Source of the DNA: Chitinophagaceae bacterium
Lineage (GTDB): Bacteria > Bacteroidota > Bacteroidia > Chitinophagales > Chitinophagaceae
Direction of reading: 5' to 3'
DNA length: 64,000 nt
Assembly: GCA_947447265.1 (NCBI GenBank)
Contig: CANFKC010000030.1
Span: 1 to 64,000, forward strand
The notes beneath the pieces are model-generated. The model had not been told where the DNA came from and did no database searches. It saw nothing but the letters and a program-made list of their open reading frames with translations. The position numbers and the translations under genes were made by a program. Of the stretch, positions 20,564 through 36,473 are shown in pieces (positions within the stretch are counted from its first letter, which is position 1; each line of letters begins with the position of its first letter).

Positions 20564-23500
20564 TTACATCACTACAACCTTTCTATAGTAAGTTGCGTTG
20601 TTAACGCTCACTTTTATCATGTAAACGCCAGCGGCGGTTTTACTAAGGTCAACTGGTATTTCTGTTGCTATTTTATCGGTAATGTTTAGACTCTTTATCA
20701 CCTTACCATTCACATCTATAATGCTGATGCCGGTCGGCCCATCATGAGCCGGCAACGTAATAACAAACAAGCCTGTGTTTGGGTTAGGCGATACTACTAC
20801 ATCTTCAGGCATTGGCCCTCCAATGTGCGTTACTTCGTCCGGACAATCAGCTGCAGGCCGAATGAACATATTAAAGGTTGAAGATGCTGAACCACACAGA
20901 TTGGTATAGGTGTAAGTGATAACAACAGCACCGCTGCTGAGACCCACTATTACCCCACCCGAATTTACTGATGCAATAGAAGTGCTGCCGCTGGTCCAGG
21001 CTCCGCCAGAAACCGTATTGGTAAGGGTAGTTGTTGCGCCAATGCAAACACTGTCGGTCCCCGAAATAGTGCCCGCATCAGGTAGTGGATTTACTGTTAT
21101 GGTAAAGGTGGTATCATCAGCGCCGCAGCTATTAGTAACGGTATAGGTAATTGTTGCTGTGCCTGTGGATAAGCCCGTCACTACACCACCTGATACTGTT
21201 GCTATAGATCCGCTGCTACTTGTCCACGCACCGCCAGCTACGGTGGTTGTAAGGGAAACGGAGTCTCCAATACATACTGAAGATGCTCCTGTAATAGCTC
21301 CAGCAACTGCAGGGACGAGTACATTAACGATGTGATAGGTACTGGCTGAACCACACACATTAGTAACGGTATAGAATATGGTATCAACTCCGGCACTCAC
21401 ACCGGATACTAAACCTCCTGCAACAGTTGCCGCAGCGCTTGAAGCCGACCATGTTCCTCCTGACAATGATGGGAAAAGCATTGCAGTTGCACTTACACAT
21501 AGCGTTGTAGCGCCAGTGATGGTGCCGGCAACGGGGTATGCATTAACTGTAATTGTTGTATGGCCTACAGCAGTTCCGCAGGCATTGCTTACAGTATAGA
21601 ATACAGTATCTGAACCAACGGCCATGCCAGTAACTGCACTGCCTGAAACAGTTGCAATGGTGCCGCTGGTAGACCAGGTGCCACCAGAAGTAGTTGATGT
21701 CAGTATAATAGTTGCACCTATACAAACGGCAGATCCACCCGATATCGTTCCGGCTGACGGCGGTGAAATAACAGATACTGCAGTCGGAACGCGGGCTGTG
21801 CCGCAAGTATTGCTAATTACATAGTAAATAGTATCGATACCACTGGTTAAACCTGCAACTACACCTCCCGATACTGAAGCGATGGTACTGCTGCTTACGG
21901 ACCATGAGCCGCCCGAAACTGAAGGAGTGAGCGTGATGGTGCTGCCCACGCAAACAGAAGTAGCACCTGTAACGACACCCGCATACGGAGCTGGGTTCAC
22001 AGTAACGACCGCGCTTGAAGTTGCGGAGCCACATGCATTGGTAAGTGAGTACACGATAGTGTCAATACCCCCGCTGATCCCGGTCACAAGTCCGGATGCA
22101 GATACAGATGCAATGGATGGGCTGACGCTGCTCCACGTTCCGCCTGGAAGAGACGCTGAAATTGTAAACGAGGTACCGGGGCATAACGTGGTAGTAGTGC
22201 CAAGGGTTGCGGCCGAAAGGTTAGTATCTACAAACATCGCGTAGGCATCAACACCCGTACCGCAAATATTGGATGAATGATAATAAACAGAATCGGTGCC
22301 GAGTGCGTGTGCTGTTACTAACCCTGACGACGAAATACTGACAATTCCGCTTCCCGTACCAGACCAAGTGCCGCCGGATATAGACGACGTAAGCAGGGTT
22401 GTACCACCCAGGCAAACGTAGTGGCTGCCAGAGATCGCCCCATAACCCGGAGCAGCACGGACGGTAATGATCTTATAGGCAGACTGGTCGCCATAAACAG
22501 TGTAAACAACTGTGTCAATTCCCGGGCTAACGCCTGTAACCACCCCTGTGGCACTGACAGTTGCGTGAGCGTTGGTAACTGTCCATACGCCGCCGCTGAG
22601 ATGGTTGGTCAACGTTATGGAACTGCCACCGCAAACAGTATCAGGGCCGTATACCATGCCTACTGTGTCCTCAATAGTATTAACTGCAGAATTAGTGTAT
22701 ACAGGTGGATTGTAATCAAAATAGATGCCGGCATAGTTGGCAATGCGTGTATTAGGTGCGAGTCCATCATTTGGTACAATTGTGAATGCAACATAGCCGA
22801 TGCTGCCAATTGGGTCGCTGGCACTGTCGGGAAGGTTAATGTCGTTAAACCTGAACTTTACAACATTGCCCGGAAACTGGTAAACCAATACTGGAGAACT
22901 GGAACTTAACACAGAAAGCGTGCTTAGGTCAAGGTCAGTGCTCAACGAATCACTCACTGTAATATTTCGTGCACGTGCCGTGCCAGTGTTCTGGAAGTGA
23001 ATGATATAGCTCAAGGGAGTACCATTAGGTATGTATCCCTGCGGGCCATAACCTTTTGGAGAAACTTGTTTTTCGTTAGGATCCCATGATGAGGTCACCG
23101 GTTCCTGCCATACGAGAGTGTTGTTTGTAAGGTCAGGATCTGTGATGCGGGATGGATCAACATGCAGGCGGTTATGCACAGTATCAAAAATAGTGGCAGT
23201 TGTGTGGCAGCGCACTTTTACATAAGCGTTGAAATCAAATAAAGACGAGTCCGAAACAAAATGCCAGCGCAAGGTATCGCCTGATATGCTTGTTGGTGCG
23301 GGGCCACTCCACATGCCAACATAACTAACTATAGTATCAAGTACCAAGGTAACTGTAGAGCTTAAGGTATCGCACATGTAACCCCACGAATTGCTCGACC
23401 ATACTCCAATTACACTTGTATCGCCGGGCACAAATCCCCAGCCCCAGCCAGCGACCTGCATATCTACGGCTGTTGGTGGAATGCACGTGAAGCCAAAATC

Positions 23501-25921
23501 CTGCGTATAGGTCCCTCCACCGGCTGTAATAGTGTAAATACCAGTAGAAGGGCAGGAAATTGCCAGTGATGCACCTGCGGTACCGTAATGAAAATAACTT
23601 GTAGGGTCCGGAATCATTGTATAGCTATAACCATTAATCAACTCCAGGGCATAATAGCCTGTGTCATTACACCAACCATAGGTAGTATCCCCCAAAGTAT
23701 TATTAATAAGCGCATAAGGCCAGTATCCGAGTTTTGTTTCTGACATCTGCCGCACGCAATCAGCGTTTGAATCAATGTATAGTACCCCGGTAAGCGGGGA
23801 ACAACTGGAGCCAACAGTAAAAGTTGTAGAGCTGGCGCTCGCAGTATATGTACTTGCCACAGCTGTAACGGTGGGTGTATACAAACCGGCAAATACGTAT
23901 GTGTGCGTAAGCGGGCTAATGGAATAGGTATAATTCCCTACGCCTGTAGAGACAACAGGAGCTGTTGCAGTAACTATTGTTCCATCGCCATAATTAATAG
24001 TAATGTTAACAGAGGTTGCCAACGCCGCCGAATCTCTCAGGGTGCCTGAAATATTAAACCTGTTTGTAAATGGAAGTGCGCAGTAGGTAGTATGCAATGC
24101 GGTGTCCGACACAGAAAGACTTACCGAGCCATGGGCGCAGGGTCCGGTAACAAATGCCGATGAATAATCTTCCTGGTAATACAGTCCCGAAGCTGTGATG
24201 GCCCGTATAAAGGTATGATAGCCTCCGGGAGTAAACGTAAGGGTAGCGGTGTCATGAAAAAAGTAAGTCGAACCTGAAAGTACATAAGGCACCTTATGCA
24301 TTAAAAATGTTGTATCGCCAATATCCTCGCTATATACTATATAAGCAGAGTCGCCTGCTGATGGAGTACCTGTAACTTTGCCCCATATATTATACTTCAC
24401 GCGCCATGGTACACTGCATATTGGTGAAACCAGGGTGTCGGCAGTTGAATCGATTCTGATGCCGGTAATACCGCTGCCGCAAACACTGCCTATGTTTCGG
24501 GCAGGAGCATTGAAGACATCGTTATATCCGCCGACAGTTGTTATAGTCACTTTCGGTTGGTATTTGCCGGGTATGGTATAGGTAAAGTCGCCAAGTGTAC
24601 TGAAAAAGTTCCCAAAACCGTAGGTGGAAGTATACCAGTAAGGAATTGTATAGTGCCTTATAGAGTTTGAGCTAAACTGGCCATAGTCGATTGTAACATG
24701 CAATGAGTCGCCGGATGCCGGTGTACGGGTTATGGTACCATAAATTCCATTGTGTACCCGCGCCGGCAGCGTGCATGCTGATGTAGCGATACTATCGGAT
24801 ACTGAGAATGAGTCTATTCCCGAGCTCGGGTTCGCAATCTTATAAGTCCATCCTCCACCGTCGGTATAATAGATGTTTCCACCTTGATCAACAGTCATAA
24901 GCTGGGCTGAAAGTGAGGCAGTTTGCGCAGGAGTGGAGGTTGCCGAATGCCCGGCTGAGCCGCAACCCGTATAGCAGCCCGCAACCGTATGAATGACACC
25001 TGTTGCGATGTTTATCGATCGAACTACTTTTGCACTTTCAGATAGGAAGTAGATGTTGCCGGAAGTATCTGCGGATAGGCCATCAGGAGCGCTGAGATTT
25101 GCTGAGGTAGCCTGTCCACCATCGCCTGAAGATGCGCCGGACATACCATTTCCTCCTATCGTCGTTATGATACCGGACGGATTTATCCTCCTTATTCTAT
25201 AGTTGGCATCATCAACGAAGTAGATATTGCCTGCGGCATCACCTGTAATAGAAGAGCCGCCGTTAAAACTAGCCGCCGTAGCAGCGCCACCATCGCCCGA
25301 AAAACCAGAGGTGCCTGTGCCGGCGTAAGTGGTAATAATGCCCGTTCCTGCCGTAACTTTCCTTATCCTGTTCGTGCATCCGACATAAATATTCTCGAAA
25401 GTATCCACGTACACAGAATGAAGTCCGCTAAGCCCCGCACTTGTAGCTGGCCCCCCATCTCCTGAAAAAGTGGTCGAACCGGAGCCAACTACTGTGCTTA
25501 TGATTCCGGTGGTATAGCTTACCTTCCTAATCCTGTTGTTATCAACAATGAAAACGTCGCCGCCGCGATTTACACAAAGGTAACTAGACCATCCTGTAGC
25601 AAGTTTTGCAACAACTGCCGGCCCACCGTCTCCTGAAAAACCGCTGGTGCCATTACCCGCAATTGTCGTGAGTATACCTGTGGCAGCATGTACTTTTCTT
25701 ATCCGGTAATTGAAAATGTCGGAAATGTAAATATTGCCGGCAGTGTCTACGCCAACCCCATAAGGTCTGAAAAAGCTGGCAGCCGCTGCTGTAGCAGGCC
25801 CGCCATCCCCGCCAAATCCAGCCCAACTGGACCCGCCTGCAACAGTTGCAATTGTACCGTATTGAGCAAATAATGGAGAGACACCGAGTAAAATTGCGAG
25901 CAGTAAGAATATTCTTTTCAT
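20564..25921 (-). CDS. giant T9SS-secreted repeat protein
   Basis: 1785 residues from the ATG at 25921; an ATG four codons upstream is also open. Signal peptide ends LFAQ. Order of domains: NHL-type beta-propeller repeats (~20-375, units such as TIAGNGTSGFSGDGGPA), PKD-like domains (~380-690), a cysteine-containing SdrD-B-like segment, a DUF11-type domain starting WDPNEKQVSPKGYG (~950-1085), eight Ig-like repeats each carrying CxG...SGGxW and NxCG, and a type A sorting domain (SPNPNTGLFVITL to YYRKVVVM). It should pass the outer membrane by T9SS and be anchored or released outside. An adhesin or matrix role is inferred. Confidence 0.9.
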   Translation of the reverse strand: MKRIFLLLAILLGVSPLFAQYGTIATVAGGSSWAGFGGDGGPATAAAASFFRPYGVGVDTAGNIYISDIFNYRIRKVHAATGILTTIAGNGTSGFSGDGGPAVVAKLATGWSSYLCVNRGGDVFIVDNNRIRKVSYTTGIISTVVGSGSTTFSGDGGPATSAGLSGLHSVYVDTFENIYVGCTNRIRKVTAGTGIITTYAGTGTSGFSGDGGAATAASFNGGSSITGDAAGNIYFVDDANYRIRRINPSGIITTIGGNGMSGASSGDGGQATSANLSAPDGLSADTSGNIYFLSESAKVVRSINIATGVIHTVAGCYTGCGSAGHSATSTPAQTASLSAQLMTVDQGGNIYYTDGGGWTYKIANPSSGIDSFSVSDSIATSACTLPARVHNGIYGTITRTPASGDSLHVTIDYGQFSSNSIRHYTIPYWYTSTYGFGNFFSTLGDFTYTIPGKYQPKVTITTVGGYNDVFNAPARNIGSVCGSGITGIRIDSTADTLVSPICSVPWRVKYNIWGKVTGTPSAGDSAYIVYSEDIGDTTFLMHKVPYVLSGSTYFFHDTATLTFTPGGYHTFIRAITASGLYYQEDYSSAFVTGPCAHGSVSLSVSDTALHTTYCALPFTNRFNISGTLRDSAALATSVNITINYGDGTIVTATAPVVSTGVGNYTYSISPLTHTYVFAGLYTPTVTAVASTYTASASSTTFTVGSSCSPLTGVLYIDSNADCVRQMSETKLGYWPYALINNTLGDTTYGWCNDTGYYALELINGYSYTMIPDPTSYFHYGTAGASLAISCPSTGIYTITAGGGTYTQDFGFTCIPPTAVDMQVAGWGWGFVPGDTSVIGVWSSNSWGYMCDTLSSTVTLVLDTIVSYVGMWSGPAPTSISGDTLRWHFVSDSSLFDFNAYVKVRCHTTATIFDTVHNRLHVDPSRITDPDLTNNTLVWQEPVTSSWDPNEKQVSPKGYGPQGYIPNGTPLSYIIHFQNTGTARARNITVSDSLSTDLDLSTLSVLSSSSPVLVYQFPGNVVKFRFNDINLPDSASDPIGSIGYVAFTIVPNDGLAPNTRIANYAGIYFDYNPPVYTNSAVNTIEDTVGMVYGPDTVCGGSSITLTNHLSGGVWTVTNAHATVSATGVVTGVSPGIDTVVYTVYGDQSAYKIITVRAAPGYGAISGSHYVCLGGTTLLTSSISGGTWSGTGSGIVSISSSGLVTAHALGTDSVYYHSSNICGTGVDAYAMFVDTNLSAATLGTTTTLCPGTSFTISASLPGGTWSSVSPSIASVSASGLVTGISGGIDTIVYSLTNACGSATSSAVVTVNPAPYAGVVTGATSVCVGSTITLTPSVSGGSWSVSSSTIASVSGGVVAGLTSGIDTIYYVISNTCGTARVPTAVSVISPPSAGTISGGSAVCIGATIILTSTTSGGTWSTSGTIATVSGSAVTGMAVGSDTVFYTVSNACGTAVGHTTITVNAYPVAGTITGATTLCVSATAMLFPSLSGGTWSASSAAATVAGGLVSGVSAGVDTIFYTVTNVCGSASTYHIVNVLVPAVAGAITGASSVCIGDSVSLTTTVAGGAWTSSSGSIATVSGGVVTGLSTGTATITYTVTNSCGADDTTFTITVNPLPDAGTISGTDSVCIGATTTLTNTVSGGAWTSGSTSIASVNSGGVIVGLSSGAVVITYTYTNLCGSASSTFNMFIRPAADCPDEVTHIGGPMPEDVVVSPNPNTGLFVITLPAHDGPTGISIIDVNGKVIKSLNITDKIATEIPVDLSKTAAGVYMIKVSVNNATYYRKVVVM
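20870..22660 (-). repeat. eight tandem Ig-like repeat units within the T9SS protein
   Basis: Eight coding repeats of ~70-75 codons, recognisable by VCxG, LxxxxSGGxW, VSxGxVxG and xNxCG. Units 4-8 are the most alike, suggesting recent duplication. Boundaries are approximate. Confidence 0.75.
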
Positions 25922-26015
25922 AAACGACAACAATGTGCAATAAAATTACATAAAATAAATTAGATATTCCTTAGAAAATATCCGTCAGAAAATAGACGCA
26001 GAATGCCGCGCCAAT

Positions 26016-31926: not shown

Positions 31927-32913
31927 GTGATAAAAATATTAACCTCATTTTCAATAATTCTTTTCATTTTTCTGCTGCCACGGCGTTGCTATGCCCAGCA
32001 GGAAGTTAATTGTCAGCCGGTATGCGTGCTGGGCGATTCCGTGAGCAATAGTATTACCACAGCCCAACTTTTGAAGTTGAAAGGTCCACGGCTCATTTTT
32101 CCGCAATGTGATACCGTTCGTAAAGATGTTTATCTGAAAACATTTACCGTCTATTGCCTCAGGGAATCCGAAATGTTGTGGGTAAAAACATGCACTGGTA
32201 AAAACGCCGGTTTTGATAAACAAACGCTTGATGTTATTAAAACCCTGAATACTGGAGATACCATTTACCTCAAAAACATTTATGCGGCCACCGGAAATGT
32301 GGATGAGGCACTCGCGCCTGTAAAACTGCAGGTAGCCGGAGATGGCGTGGTAGAGAAGAAAACCCTGAAGAAGCGGGATGGAACAACATCCGTTACACGT
32401 ACGATAACCATTGCGGATGCAGTAAACGGAGTGAAGAGAAAGGGAATGACAGTTGCCAGAGACACCACCCTTGCTGTCTCCTTAGTGGAGCAGGTGAAAA
32501 GCGGGGCATTAAAAGCCTATCCGGCTTTGAATTTTGAAGCGGGCAATCCATTATCAACCACTGAAATTACCCGCATGTTTGCAATGGCGCTCGATTCCAT
32601 TATGGTAGAAGATGTCGATGGCACATTGATAAAAAAGACATTGAAGCGACCATTTGATTACTGCAGCATTAGCAGCTTTAAAGTGATGCAAGAATGGAGC
32701 CCGGGAGAGGAAAGTGATGAGGACAAGGTCGTTATTCTTGCTATTGCGCCGATAAGCGATTATTACGACGAAGAAGAAAATGTTTGGGCACACAGACCCT
32801 TATTCTGGATAAAATACGAAGATGTAGCAGGCATTATAGAAGATTTCGATACCGAACATCCAAAGAGTACTTTTTCAAAGGCCGTCTGGAAAGACTTTCT
32901 GAAGGCTAAGTAG
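31927..32913 (+). CDS. secreted GldM-C/GldN-like protein 1
   Basis: 328 residues from GTG, signal peptide ending CYAQ. Residues ~28-140 resemble the fourth (last) periplasmic domain of GldM (LKTFTVYCLRESEMLWVKT, LNTGDTIYLKNI). Residues ~185-328 resemble GldN (GALKAYP, DSIMVEDVDGTLIKK, SISSFKVMQEWSP, IAPISDYYDE, RPLFWIKYEDV). GldM spans the periplasm and GldN sits with GldK at the outer membrane in the type IX secretion system. This is the shortest of three tandem paralogues and lacks the first Ig-like domain. The family assignment is by remembered motifs, so moderate. Confidence 0.6.
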   Translation: MIKILTSFSIILFIFLLPRRCYAQQEVNCQPVCVLGDSVSNSITTAQLLKLKGPRLIFPQCDTVRKDVYLKTFTVYCLRESEMLWVKTCTGKNAGFDKQTLDVIKTLNTGDTIYLKNIYAATGNVDEALAPVKLQVAGDGVVEKKTLKKRDGTTSVTRTITIADAVNGVKRKGMTVARDTTLAVSLVEQVKSGALKAYPALNFEAGNPLSTTEITRMFAMALDSIMVEDVDGTLIKKTLKRPFDYCSISSFKVMQEWSPGEESDEDKVVILAIAPISDYYDEEENVWAHRPLFWIKYEDVAGIIEDFDTEHPKSTFSKAVWKDFLKAK

Positions 32914-33125
32914 GGCAATAGCCTACCATTCCACGCAGAGGTGCAATGCCGCAGTTTACAGCTTATTCAAGATTTCAAAGGCGCAATAAGTAGGTTGTCT
33001 GTACTGTCTAAGACATATACTATGGCAGAGTCAATAGAGAACATAAAAAATCAAAGGCCGCGCAATCGCTTATGAGATTTCTTTCAAGCCGTACTGCCCC
33101 ATTCCCAACCGTTACTCCAAAATGT
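32914..33125. other. intergenic region with a degenerate dispersed repeat
   Basis: No gene. 32931-32986 is a diverged copy of the repeat around the GxxExxY gene: ACGCAGAGGTGCAATGCCGCAG, a spacer, then ATTCAAGATTTCAAAGGCGCAA. Confidence 0.55.
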
Positions 33126-33133
33126 TATATTTG
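33126..33133 (+). promoter_or_regulatory. -7 element TATATTTG followed by a leader hairpin
   Basis: Exact TAnnTTTG match. The leader carries an 8-bp perfect stem TGATGTTG/CAACATCA (33134-33141 with 33147-33154) before the ATG at 33171. Confidence 0.5.
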
Positions 33134-33170
33134 TGATGTTGTTAATCAACATCATCAAACACCGCACTAA

Positions 33171-34397
33171 ATGAAATTACTGATAAGGCTGTTTTTCCTG
33201 CTTGCTATTGTGCTCCCCGGTGGCAATTCTGCTTTCGCACAACGGTATTCTATATCTACGAATAGGGGTCCGTTACTTGCTGGCAAGGATAATACGCTTA
33301 CGATTACCGTGCCCAACAAAAAGTGTGCGGACCTTCTAGTAACCACTGACAATGGCAGCATTGCAAACGATAGCTGCAGCTTCACACTTATTCCCAGCAG
33401 GGCTGGCGCCTGTAAACTGAGCATCTCGGTAAAGACGAAAACCGGTGTTCAGAAAATTTGCGATACAACCCTGCCAGTTGATAAAATTCAGTGCAACCCA
33501 GTGTGCGATCTGGCGGGAGTGAATTTTGGTAATATCCCTTACAAGAAACTAACCAAAGCAAAAGGCTTACGTATAGGGTATGCCAACTGCAACTGGGAAG
33601 AGAGCCCTTACTTTATAAAACGGTACAAGCTTTTTGTTTTAAGGAAGTCGGAGGTCATTTTTATGAGGGATTTTGTTGGTCATAATCCTGATTTCGATGA
33701 CGAGACGCTTGGGTTTTTAAGTACATTACAGACCGGCGACGTACTTAATTTTAAGAATATAGACGTTAGTGATGGAAGTGCCGCGCGGAGCTTTGGTGAT
33801 TTGAATTTCCGTGTAATTCGCGACCCGGAGGAGAAAGAACCAGAAGGCGACACAGAGTGGCGCATCAGCATAATTTCACGTAAAATAATAGTTGGAGATA
33901 CTTCTGAAACTGTAAAGAAGACTTCATCAACCGTGCATGACACACTGCTCGCGGAAAAAATTATAAGTAAAGTTAAAGCTGGCAAACTCAAAGCCTATAC
34001 TTCATCAAACTATAACTCACCTACTCCGCTCACGAAGACAGAAATTAGTAAAATATTCAAAGCTGATTTGGACACCATTGAAGTAGAAGATGTAGATGGT
34101 ACTGTGCTGAAAAAAATAACGGAGATGCAATACAATTTCAATAGCATTAATAGCTTTAAGGTTATTGAAAAGTGTAAGTACAACCGCAGGACAGGAAAGA
34201 TGGAAATCAGTATCCTGAGTGTAGCTCCCTTAAGGGATTACTATAACGAAATCGGCACCTGGATAGGCTATAAGCCATTATTCTGGGTCGATTATACAGA
34301 TGTGAAAGCTGACATAAATTACTACGACCACGAACACCCCGATCATAATTTTGAACGTGCTATCTGGGAAGATTATATGAAGAAGTGGAACGATTAA
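33171..34397 (+). CDS. secreted GldM-C/GldN-like protein 2
   Basis: 408 residues, signal peptide ending AFAQ. Three parts: an Ig-like domain (~28-105; LLAGKDNTLTITVPN, LVTTDNGSI) as in GldM domain 3; a second (~108-225; FIKRYKLFVLRKSEVIFMRD, LQTGDVLNFKNIDV) as in GldM domain 4; and a GldN-like part (~255-408; GKLKAYT, DTIEVEDVDGTVLKK, SINSFKVIEKCKYNRRTGKM, VAPLRDYYNEIGTW, YKPLFWVDYTDV, AIWEDYMKKW). GldL and the membrane helix of GldM are missing, so it would be free in the periplasm. It forms an apparent operon with the next paralogue (63-nt gap). Confidence 0.62.
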   Translation: MKLLIRLFFLLAIVLPGGNSAFAQRYSISTNRGPLLAGKDNTLTITVPNKKCADLLVTTDNGSIANDSCSFTLIPSRAGACKLSISVKTKTGVQKICDTTLPVDKIQCNPVCDLAGVNFGNIPYKKLTKAKGLRIGYANCNWEESPYFIKRYKLFVLRKSEVIFMRDFVGHNPDFDDETLGFLSTLQTGDVLNFKNIDVSDGSAARSFGDLNFRVIRDPEEKEPEGDTEWRISIISRKIIVGDTSETVKKTSSTVHDTLLAEKIISKVKAGKLKAYTSSNYNSPTPLTKTEISKIFKADLDTIEVEDVDGTVLKKITEMQYNFNSINSFKVIEKCKYNRRTGKMEISILSVAPLRDYYNEIGTWIGYKPLFWVDYTDVKADINYYDHEHPDHNFERAIWEDYMKKWND

Positions 34398-34460
34398 TTG
34401 CCTGATTACAAAGTCGGCTATCATTACAATGCTGTATTCCTTTTAATCTAAAAATAAAGT

Positions 34461-35648
34461 ATGAAAAACCAACTTCGTGTAGTGCTTTCCGCAATTGTTG
34501 TACTTGTTTCACTGAATGCCGTTTACGCACAGCGTTTTAAAATAGAGCAGCTCCAGTATCGGGTAATCGAAGGTAAGAGCAATCTATTCAGGGTAACGGT
34601 CGCAGACAAGTCATGTAACGAAATAGTTGCAACAACAGATAATGGAACAATACAACAAGACAACTGTGTATTGCTATATACTCCTGCAAAACCAGGTAAG
34701 GCCAGGCTGTCGGTTGCCATAAAAAGTGGGAAGGAATTAGAGAAAATTGGCGATACTATTCTGTCTGTTGAGCCTAACCGGTGCAGCCCGGTGATTACCT
34801 TGTTGGGGCGAACGGGTAGTGGCATTTCGGCAGAAGAGTTAAGCAGGGCCGTGCGCCTGGAATTTATTTATCCGGGATGCAGTGACCGCGCCCACAGTGA
34901 GTTCAGCGTAAATCAGTACTGGCTGTTTATAAGGCGAGGAAAGGAGTTGATCTATAGTAAATTGAACGTGCCCGGCCATACTGATTTTGATGTAAAAACT
35001 TTAGCGCTATTCAGAAACCTGGAAGTCGGCGATACGGTTATGTTTGCATCAATAATAGTTATGGGTCCTGATAAAAAGCACCGCAATATGGGACAGATAA
35101 AATTTGATATTGCTGACTATTCTACTCATCGCAACGACACTAACAATTCGCCTAATGTGGGTGCGCTATCTTCAAGAATAATTTCACTTAGCGATACCGC
35201 TAAAAGCCATGCACTTGCCATGACCTTAATAAACAAAATAAAAGCAGGGAAGATAAAGGCTTACCCATATTTAGATAGAAATAGCAGTCCGCTTTCACTG
35301 GAAGAAGCTAATAATATATTTGCCCCTACATTAGATACTATTGAGGTGGAAGAAATAGATGGCGGATTTACTCACAAGGTTATAAAAACAGATTTTTCGT
35401 TTAGCGCACTCAATGGTTTTAAGGTTTTAGAATGCACAACCTTCAATTCTCAAACAAATGCGACTACTGTTAAAATTGTAAGTGTGGCACTTTTAACCGA
35501 TGGAATTCTTGCAGACGATTCTTACGGCTATCAACCCTTGTGCTGGTTAATATATGACGATATACAAGAGGACATCAATACATTCGATCACAAGCATCCT
35601 GCTGGTGGCTTTGGGGATGCCATATGGAAAGGGCGCAATAAACGGTAG
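34461..35648 (+). CDS. secreted GldM-C/GldN-like protein 3
   Basis: 395 residues, signal peptide ending VYAQ. Same three-part layout as its neighbour at 33171: GldM-domain-3-like (~28-105; EIVATTDNGTI), GldM-domain-4-like (~108-225; NQYWLFIRRGKELIY, LEVGDTVMFASI) and GldN-like (~255-395; GKIKAYPYLD, DTIEVEEIDGG, ALNGFKVLECTTF, YGYQPLCWLIYDDI). The GldN-like end is the most diverged of the three, for example LLTDGI where the others have PLRDYY-type sequence. That suggests relaxed or changed function. Confidence 0.6.
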   Translation: MKNQLRVVLSAIVVLVSLNAVYAQRFKIEQLQYRVIEGKSNLFRVTVADKSCNEIVATTDNGTIQQDNCVLLYTPAKPGKARLSVAIKSGKELEKIGDTILSVEPNRCSPVITLLGRTGSGISAEELSRAVRLEFIYPGCSDRAHSEFSVNQYWLFIRRGKELIYSKLNVPGHTDFDVKTLALFRNLEVGDTVMFASIIVMGPDKKHRNMGQIKFDIADYSTHRNDTNNSPNVGALSSRIISLSDTAKSHALAMTLINKIKAGKIKAYPYLDRNSSPLSLEEANNIFAPTLDTIEVEEIDGGFTHKVIKTDFSFSALNGFKVLECTTFNSQTNATTVKIVSVALLTDGILADDSYGYQPLCWLIYDDIQEDINTFDHKHPAGGFGDAIWKGRNKR

Positions 35649-35658
35649 GTAATGGACT

Positions 35659-36312
35659 TTAATTTAACACCCTTACCATCCTTAAACAAAACAGATTATT
35701 GAATTGCCCCTGGTTGCCGTAGCTATATCCATACGGTATGCGCTCAGGCGGGCGGATGGAGGTAAGGGAGTACTCGTAACGAACATTTACAAACCACTTA
35801 TCGTATAGCTTCCTTGTAAAGCCGCAGGCAAAATCGACATCAGATGTGCTGAACATGTTACGGATAGGATCTATGACCACAGGCTGATCTGCAATCACAT
35901 CTTCCTTACTGCCCACCAGGTAGTTGTAAGATGCTCCTAGTTCCATATCGTACTTACCATAAATGGCATGAAACATAATTGGTACTTCCACATAATTCAC
36001 ATCCATGTAGTAACGGGCGAAATAGGCCCCCACGTATTGCGAATTGGTTTCGGTAACGCCCCTGCTCCCCTTGCGCGAATACAATAATTCCATGCTTATA
36101 CCTACAGTTGGGGTAAAATGTACATAAACCATTGCGCCGGCATTCAGCGCTACTTTATGGTAACCGTAGTAAGAATCACCATCTACTTGTGAAAAGTTCA
36201 GCCCTGCCAGTAAGGCACCTGTAAACGGCTTTGGGTCATCGCCATACATATTCTGGGCATGTATGCCGCTGCAACTTAAAGCCACTAAATAGAACAGGAA
36301 CCATTTTTTCAT
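35659..36312 (-). CDS. outer-membrane beta-barrel protein, PorT-like
   Basis: 217 residues from the ATG at 36312, signal peptide ending IHAQ. A 34-codon upstream extension is basic and unlike a signal sequence, so it is rejected. The body shows the alternating pattern and turns of an eight-stranded barrel (GALLAGLNFSQVDGDSYYGY, VGISMELLYSRKGSRG, VEVPIMFHAIYGKYDMELGA). It resembles the broad PorT/outer-membrane beta-barrel family. PorT itself is a T9SS component, which would suit the neighbouring Gld-like genes, but this family has many other members. Confidence 0.75.
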   Translation of the reverse strand: MKKWFLFYLVALSCSGIHAQNMYGDDPKPFTGALLAGLNFSQVDGDSYYGYHKVALNAGAMVYVHFTPTVGISMELLYSRKGSRGVTETNSQYVGAYFARYYMDVNYVEVPIMFHAIYGKYDMELGASYNYLVGSKEDVIADQPVVIDPIRNMFSTSDVDFACGFTRKLYDKWFVNVRYEYSLTSIRPPERIPYGYSYGNQGQFNNLFCLRMVRVLN

Positions 36313-36338
36313 TCGCCAATACCAAAACTTAATAACTG

Positions 36339-36346
36339 CAAAGGTA
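36339..36346 (-). promoter_or_regulatory. -7 element TACCTTTG before the beta-barrel gene
   Basis: Exact TAnnTTTG match on the minus strand, 27 nt before the ATG at 36312. Confidence 0.5.
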
Positions 36347-36473
36347 TCTTGTTTAGTGCATGGACCGCTGCTTTTTCGTTCCGGCAGGCGGTAATGGCGG
36401 CCGTCAGCCTTCAATTGCGCGATTTTTATATTTTATTTTTGATTTTACGCCTGTTTCAGTAACCGTTAGGCAT

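What the first reader, a model, noticed from the sequence alone, without database searches (positions are those of the whole stretch)
31927..35648. Three tandem secreted proteins joining a GldM C-terminal region to a GldN-like domain
Seen: three adjacent genes encode signal peptides, one or two Ig-like domains with TTDNGSI / TGDxxxFxNI motifs, and a shared C-terminal region with KAY, DTIEVEDVDG, SFKVIE, APLRDYY and PLFWVxY. Known: GldM projects such Ig-like domains into the periplasm to contact GldN at the outer membrane, and T9SS/gliding uses these as separate proteins. Inference: here the two partners are fused and freed from the inner membrane, in triplicate and away from a gldKLMN cluster. 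They could be alternative T9SS adaptors, decoys, or part of an undescribed periplasmic assembly. This is my leading candidate for a new system.
Basis: partly seen in the sequence, partly recalled or inferred. Interest (0 to 1): 0.75.

Follow-up and report, generated by a model that had tools for sequence, protein, structure and literature searches.

The report
Secreted fusions of two T9SS-motor domains
Three neighbouring genes of a Taibaiella bacterium each encode an exported protein that joins the tip of a gliding/secretion motor arm (GldM) to the core of its outer-membrane partner (GldN), without the membrane anchor or the ring-building arms; the papers searched gave no description of this, and it offers a small handle on how the two parts touch.

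Summary
Three adjacent plus-strand ORFs (31927-32913, 33171-34397, 34461-35648) encode exported proteins whose C-terminal half is a GldN core (Pfam PF19841 over cut-off in 3 of 3) and whose N-terminal half is the GldM arm tip: D3+D4 in two, D4 alone in the first. Profiles, AlphaFold2 models and Foldseek agree, matching PorM and PorN in one chain. There is no hydrophobic segment beyond the signal peptide, no D1/D2, and no C-terminal arm of ring-type GldN. The genome has two complete gldKLMN clusters on other contigs. Trees show each half nearest to families that had already left the machine (stand-alone D3D4 proteins, stand-alone GldN cores), not a gldM-gldN read-through. Fusions were found in 2 of 11 Taibaiella genomes, both directly behind mutS, and in no other genome searched. 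They diverge fast: 27-29% identity where MutS is 86%. My reading is a fast-evolving accessory that engages the GldM-GldN interface in trans and tunes motor-track coupling; this is inferred, not shown. The joining supports a direct D4-GldN contact, which published modelling left uncertain. New variant of a known kind.

The parts
31927..32913 (+). Fusion gene 1 (328 aa, GTG start): signal peptide, D4-like domain, GldN core
   Evidence: PF19841 51.6 bits over residues 155-326; the D profile matches only its D4 part, profile positions 79-198
31996..32355 (+). D4-like part of fusion 1, from the presumed mature N terminus
   Evidence: alignments A3 and A8
32356..32910 (+). linker and GldN core of fusion 1
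33171..34397 (+). Fusion gene 2 (408 aa): signal peptide, D3, D4, GldN core
   Evidence: full-length AlphaFold2 model pLDDT 87.9, pTM 0.69; Foldseek finds PorM and PorN
33240..33839 (+). D3-D4 half of fusion 2
   Evidence: model pLDDT 94.4; Foldseek 7cmg_A PorM E 7.3e-11, TMq 0.66
33840..34394 (+). linker and GldN core of fusion 2
   Evidence: PF19841 61.0 bits; profile A10 of the four fusions' GldN halves finds PorN 7pvh at E 1.7e-4
34461..35648 (+). Fusion gene 3 (395 aa): signal peptide, D3, D4, GldN core
   Evidence: PF19841 42.9 bits
29153..31777 (+). mutS, directly upstream; marks the same site in a second species (context, not part of what is described)
   Evidence: name from my own reading of the sequence, no family search; synteny

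Best explanation
Shown: exported three-domain (D3-D4-N) or two-domain (D4-N) chimeras of two modules that occur detached from the T9SS/gliding motor, a GldM arm tip and a GldN core. Inferred from this: they are soluble periplasmic proteins that cannot generate or transmit torque (no GldM transmembrane helix, no D1-D2) and probably do not build a GldK-GldN ring or track by themselves (no C-terminal arm; D4 sits where the N-terminal arm would be). Most likely they act in trans on the two canonical GldKLMN machines of this cell, the GldN core and/or the D4 tip engaging the GldM-GldN interface, so as to cap, block or re-route the coupling between motor and track, or as adaptors for particular cargo. 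Their fast divergence fits a recognition role better than a structural one.
For: Both halves are identified separately: Pfam GldN 3 of 3; GldM-free profiles to GldM and PorM; models and Foldseek. Arm missing: after the core the four fusions have at most 3 residues, 18 ORFs sorted as stand-alone at most 9, and 67 ORFs sorted as ring-type at least 47 (the sorting rule itself used tail under 20, so the point is the empty gap between 9 and 47). Two gldKLMN clusters and SprA are present as possible targets. Fast change: the fusion behind mutS in G009 is 27-29% identical to the window copies, while MutS is 86%, cluster-C48 GldM 77%, GldL 79% and a stand-alone D3D4 63%. In the PorKN study AlphaFold3 puts the PorM D4 tip in the cleft between PorN subunits (PMC12635249, section 11 read), so joining D4 to GldN links predicted neighbours. 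Genomes with stand-alone GldN cores mostly have stand-alone D3D4 too: 9 of 10 against 26 of 284, by reading the listed rows (test).
Against: No binding, location or phenotype is shown. No neighbour seen ties the stand-alone or fused genes to T9SS genes. The fusion is rare: 2 of 11 Taibaiella genomes, only the own genome among 294 of the family (G009 not drawn) and 395 of the phylum, both at E 1e-18. Low conservation is equally what loss of function or an unrelated binding role would give. The 316-aa copy may be an out-paralogue, which would lessen the rate contrast. The authors of PMC12635249 call the confidence of their D4-PorN contact weak and its surface not substantially conserved. In the full-length Foldseek search the superpositions are loose (TMq 0.26-0.28, rmsd 7.6-12.3).
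Confidence: 0.4

Rival explanations
1. The two modules were recruited as general binding scaffolds for an envelope task unrelated to T9SS, for instance recognition or immunity in contact-dependent antagonism, and only their folds recall the motor.
For: Fast divergence, tandem copies and patchy presence. In G255 two tandem stand-alone D3D4 genes follow a gene with a sub-threshold Metallopeptidase-toxin-3 match (24.5 bits, cut-off 25), and the stand-alone D3D4 loci of G235 and G255 share a neighbour family. One type of stand-alone D3D4 follows a sigma factor gene in Taibaiella.
Against: The window neighbours scanned show no toxin-like family. Of the context loci only L188 and L195 were scanned for this, and only L195 gave a toxin-like match. 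No PADLOC family matched the four fusions. Two unrelated scaffolds would not be expected to be two machine neighbours.
Confidence: 0.3
2. A self-assembling polymer: D4 of one molecule docks on the GldN core of the next, giving a motor-less filament or cap.
For: The two joined modules are predicted to touch in the motor (PMC12635249); chains with two GldN cores exist in relatives.
Against: Nothing here shows self-association; the C-terminal arm that orders on ring assembly is missing.
Confidence: 0.07
3. A direct fusion of the neighbouring gldM and gldN genes with loss of the GldM N-terminal part.
For: The order D3-D4-N equals the operon order M then N.
Against: In the trees the GldN halves lie outside the branch that holds the 48 ring-type GldN rows (SH-aLRT 99), and the D3D4 halves lie with stand-alone D3D4 proteins (22 rows: 18 stand-alone, 4 fusions; SH-aLRT 91, not starred). 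Both are quick trees with long branches, so the second is weaker.
Confidence: 0.05
4. Decaying duplicates without function.
For: Low identity between copies: against copy 2, 28 and 31% in the D halves and 38 and 40% in the N halves; copy 1 against copy 3, 19% and 31%.
Against: Three intact ORFs of 328-408 codons at that divergence, with signal peptides and, for copy 2, a confidently predicted fold, plus an intact copy at the same site in another species.
Confidence: 0.08

Closest known systems
GldM/PorM (TIGR03517; Pfam PF12081, PF21601, PF21602, PF12080), T9SS and gliding motor arm
   Same: The N-terminal half has the D3-D4 fold of the arm tip.
   Different: No transmembrane helix seen beyond the signal peptide, no D1 or D2, fused to GldN; TIGR03517 scores 14.5 bits of 180, in protein 2 only.
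GldN/PorN (TIGR03523; Pfam PF19841), ring or track subunit
   Same: The C-terminal half has the GldN core.
   Different: No C-terminal arm (at least 47 residues in ring-type forms), D4 in place of the N-terminal arm, not beside gldKLM; TIGR03523 scores 13.6, 16.5 and no match against 85.9.
GldO of Flavobacterium johnsoniae, a GldN paralogue partly redundant with GldN (PMC9127263, passages read)
   Same: An additional GldN-type protein in the same cell.
   Different: gldO lies next to gldN; the window genes are on another contig than the gldKLMN clusters and are fused.
Stand-alone secreted GldN cores and D3D4 proteins of Chitinophagaceae (no name found in my searches)
   Same: Nearest relatives of each half, with signal peptides, off-cluster where seen.
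   Different: Separate proteins, not joined.

Membership tests
GldN/PorN | Pfam PF19841 match over cut-off | tested here: met
   3 of 3
GldN/PorN | NCBIfam equivalog TIGR03523 over cut-off | tested here: not met
   13.6, 16.5 and no match, cut-off 85.9; the three ring-type GldNs of the same genome reach 169.8, 144.9 and 122.4
GldN/PorN | C-terminal arm beyond the core that orders on ring assembly | tested here: not met
   tails of 3, 0, 1 and -4 residues in four fusions against at least 47 in ORFs sorted as ring-type; role of the arm from PMC12635249
GldN/PorN | gene in a gldKLMN cluster | tested here: not met
   neighbours are mutS (by reading), an outer-membrane barrel gene and tgt
GldN/PorN | forms a ring or track with GldK | not testable with these tools
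   needs biochemistry
GldM/PorM | D3-D4 fold | tested here: met
   protein 2; profiles; D4 only in protein 1
GldM/PorM | N-terminal transmembrane helix and D1-D2 ahead of D3-D4 | tested here: not met
   D3 or D4 follows the signal peptide directly
GldM/PorM | NCBIfam equivalog TIGR03517 over cut-off | tested here: not met
   14.5 bits of 180, protein 2 only
T9SS cargo | T9SS C-terminal sorting domain | tested here: not met
   no NCBIfam sorting-domain match up to E 10

The most novel reading that the evidence does not exclude
Chitinophagaceae carry an undescribed motor-less counterpart of the GldM-GldN contact: secreted arm tips (D3D4) and secreted GldN cores working as a periplasmic pair, joined in one chain in Taibaiella, which competes with or re-routes the T9SS/gliding motors.
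Probability: 0.3. Interest if true: 0.78.

Novelty: new variant of a known kind. Interest (0 to 1): 0.56.

Why it matters
How the GldM arm touches the GldN ring or track is open: the 2025 PorKN study could only model it and called its confidence weak (PMC12635249). Here the same two modules are joined in one soluble chain of about 400 residues, which argues that D4 and GldN are direct partners and gives a small target for crystallography, NMR or cryo-EM. It also points to two unnamed families of secreted motor parts, the D3D4 one listed in 20 genera of the family, which annotation by single-domain match would call GldM or GldN although they cannot do that job.

Tried and rejected
Read-through fusion of gldM and gldN: spoken against by the trees. 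Mobile or phage origin: protein 2 has no match in phage records or plasmid records, and alignment A2 none in viral contigs (60 stretches matched a pattern, none a relative). Known defence system: no PADLOC match for the three window fusions, the G009 fusion or one stand-alone D3D4; one stand-alone GldN core gave Cas6 at E 0.014, taken as chance. RNA element: no Rfam family in the window at gathering cut-offs. The Bacteroidota promoter motif TAnnTTTG (recalled, from no call) occurs shortly before genes 1 and 2, but 69 matches in the window against 70 expected make it no evidence; sigma-70-like sites 16 against 12.4. Conserved operon partner of the stand-alone genes: none general; a pair of families (one Fer4-like, label recalled) recurs beside GldN cores in 4 loci, an M14-peptidase family in 4 at varying distance (one member scanned); neither pursued. 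Joint alignments A4 and A5 put D3D4 fragments wholly or partly on the wrong half, so the D half was modelled with A6 and the full length with A7, which has GldN fragments only. In A7 many GldN fragments start with a few residues placed before the GldN half. The profile of the four fusions' D parts alone found no PorM, a result against, probably because it is mostly D4 and only 120 positions. A genome-contig scan with the fusion alignment found one locus only, the G009 one (two short peptide patterns, low sensitivity).

Labels and slips: L043 (169 aa) and L032_2098 (202 aa) are labelled canonical but are stand-alone forms, and L043 (another family of the order) sits with the fusions on a long branch. 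In one search L167 is a GldM cut by a contig end and L183 a stand-alone form labelled GldM. In one search the stand-alone list holds one cut window fragment (L005) and the ring-type list two doubles (L037, L103); the genus count of 119 used there was a mistake, redone with 97.
Full report
Observation. They hold their frame over 328-408 codons although copies share only about a third of their residues, and each starts with a signal-peptide-like segment. Pfam names a GldN domain over its cut-off in 3 of 3. GldM_3rd is hinted at in protein 2 only, below its cut-off.

The GldM half. To limit circularity I built profiles from fusions and stand-alone relatives with no GldM row in them. They found D3-D4 of canonical GldM across the order at E-values down to 1e-30 in the set of ORFs from fetched loci, and solved PorM 6ey5 at 3.7e-15 and GldM 6ey4 at 1.4e-5. 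Some of the stand-alone rows had been found with Pfam GldM models in the first place. The four fusions alone gave no PorM match, although the three window proteins gave the cluster-C48 GldM at 6.9e-6. The AlphaFold2 model of the half has pLDDT 94.4 (its alignment did contain GldM rows), and Foldseek ranks PorM and GldM first to seventh.

The GldN half. A profile of the four fusions' GldN halves alone finds PorN (7pvh, 1.7e-4). The full-length model of protein 2 (pLDDT 87.9, pTM 0.69) matches PorM and GldM in rows 1-7 and PorN in rows 8-12 of one Foldseek search; the superpositions are loose (TMq 0.26-0.28, rmsd 7.6-12.3), as each target covers about half of the query. Tail lengths set the half apart from ring-type GldN: one search sorted 18 ORFs as stand-alone (one a cut window fragment), tails at most 9, and 67 as ring-type (two are doubles), tails at least 47; fusions have at most 3. 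The sorting rule used tail length itself, so the finding is that nothing lies between 9 and 47. In PorKN rings both PorN termini become ordered on assembly, the N-terminus against PorK, the C-terminus on the inner face (PMC12635249, section 11 read).

The genome. The one named relative found is Taibaiella sp. LF-bin-309, whose contig has the same length and the same gene as contig C142 of G009, a genome of the window's genus; I therefore call the genus Taibaiella. The window's genome has nine GldN-domain matches: three ring-type GldNs (C1, C48, C60), one stand-alone core (C9), a chain with two (C8), and the three fusions. It has two gldKLMN clusters (C1 and C48), one SprA, and stand-alone D3D4 proteins on C41, C17 and C10; a fourth, weak D4 match lies in a 597-aa ORF on C15. 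A protein with a T9SS sorting domain lies in the window (20564-25933).

Relatives. Matches spanning both halves were found in 2 of 11 Taibaiella genomes (G009 spans D4 and GldN), in the same 2 of 59 relatives, and only in the own genome among 294 of the family (G009 not drawn) and 395 of the phylum, the last two at E 1e-18. In G009 the fusion (316 aa) also stands directly behind mutS. Of the 11 genomes, 10 gave a MutS match. Behind it, G004, G005, G006, G007, G008 and G010 have another ORF on the same strand; in G003 the next ORFs seen are on the other strand or the contig ends; in G001 the contig ends; none of these matched either profile; G002 gave no match. Stand-alone D3D4 proteins are common: the listed rows show candidates, by open-frame length, in 35 of 294 genomes and 20 genera (a lower bound, as the list is cut; not all rows were checked for contig ends). 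Stand-alone or double GldN cores were listed in 10 of 294 genomes. Nine of those ten also have stand-alone D3D4, against 26 of 284 others (p 1.6e-8; leaving out Taibaiella 4 of 5 against 26 of 284, p 4.5e-4; by genus 3 of 4 against 17 of 97, p 0.024). Kinship inflates the genome-level figures.

Origin. A quick tree puts the 48 ring-type GldN rows, second cluster included, on one side of a branch (SH-aLRT 99) and the other 39 rows (17 stand-alone, 16 halves of doubles, 4 fusions, 2 mislabelled short forms) on the other. The D3D4 halves lie with stand-alone D3D4 proteins (22 rows, SH-aLRT 91, drawn open). The C10-type stand-alone proteins branch apart from these, so D3D4 may have left GldM more than once. 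So two detached families were joined, rather than the two operon genes.

Rate. Between the two species MutS is 86% identical, cluster-C48 GldM 77%, GldL 79%, the C60-type GldN 66%, a stand-alone D3D4 63%, but the fusions 27-29%. The 316-aa copy may be an out-paralogue of the window copies, which would lessen this contrast.

Mechanism. Shown: domain make-up, export signal, missing anchor and arm, origin, rate. Inferred: periplasmic location, binding to GldN, GldK or GldM in trans, and modulation of motor-track coupling. The strongest rival is recruitment for an unrelated envelope task.

Literature. Searches: GldM+GldN+fusion (19 of 19 papers listed), GldN+paralog (30 of 33), GldN, PorN, paralogue, Chitinophaga (20 of 109), six phrases on GldM and GldN domains and families (6 of 6), Taibaiella with type IX secretion (2 of 2), GldM, GldN, duplicat, gldKLMN (18 of 18). 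No title or start of abstract among those listed speaks of such a fusion or of stand-alone families; I did not read those papers. Of PMC12635249 I saw the outline with abstract, passages and section 11; of PMC9127263 passages. Most subscription papers and all bioRxiv preprints are not held.

Noticed in passing
L021 (contig C48), 8653-13793: A second gldKLMN cluster; rows of its GldM or GldN clade also come from G003, G006, G008, G009, G010 and G015. Its GldK lacks the cysteine of the reactive loop (KKGLTANF against KKGCYLANF in cluster C1), shows no clear lipobox by eye and scores just under the GldK cut-off (341.6 of 350); its GldN clade has a long branch. Possibly a motor that does not form the GldK-PorG/SprF disulfide.
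   Followed up: partly
L022 13819-14757: A third ring-type GldN at the edge of contig C60, with no gldKLM seen; the contig end hides its upstream side.
   Followed up: no
L059, L060, L061, L070, L096, L103: Tandem arrays of secreted GldN cores, some chains with two GldN cores (374-451 aa over all loci seen), in Taibaiella and another genus.
   Followed up: partly
L195 4680-6980: Two tandem stand-alone D3D4 genes directly behind a gene with a sub-threshold metallopeptidase-toxin-3 match.
   Followed up: partly
L027 8467-10242, L198 4497-6182: A type of stand-alone D3D4 protein that directly follows a sigma factor gene and a small gene (Pfam run on the L027 gene only). Matches of similar size occur in each of the 11 Taibaiella genomes, orthology checked for few.
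   Followed up: partly
window 35659-36414, minus strand: An outer-membrane beta-barrel gene (OMP_b-brl_2) converging on the third fusion gene.
   Followed up: no
window 20564-25933, minus strand: A 1789-aa protein with a T9SS type A sorting domain.
   Followed up: no
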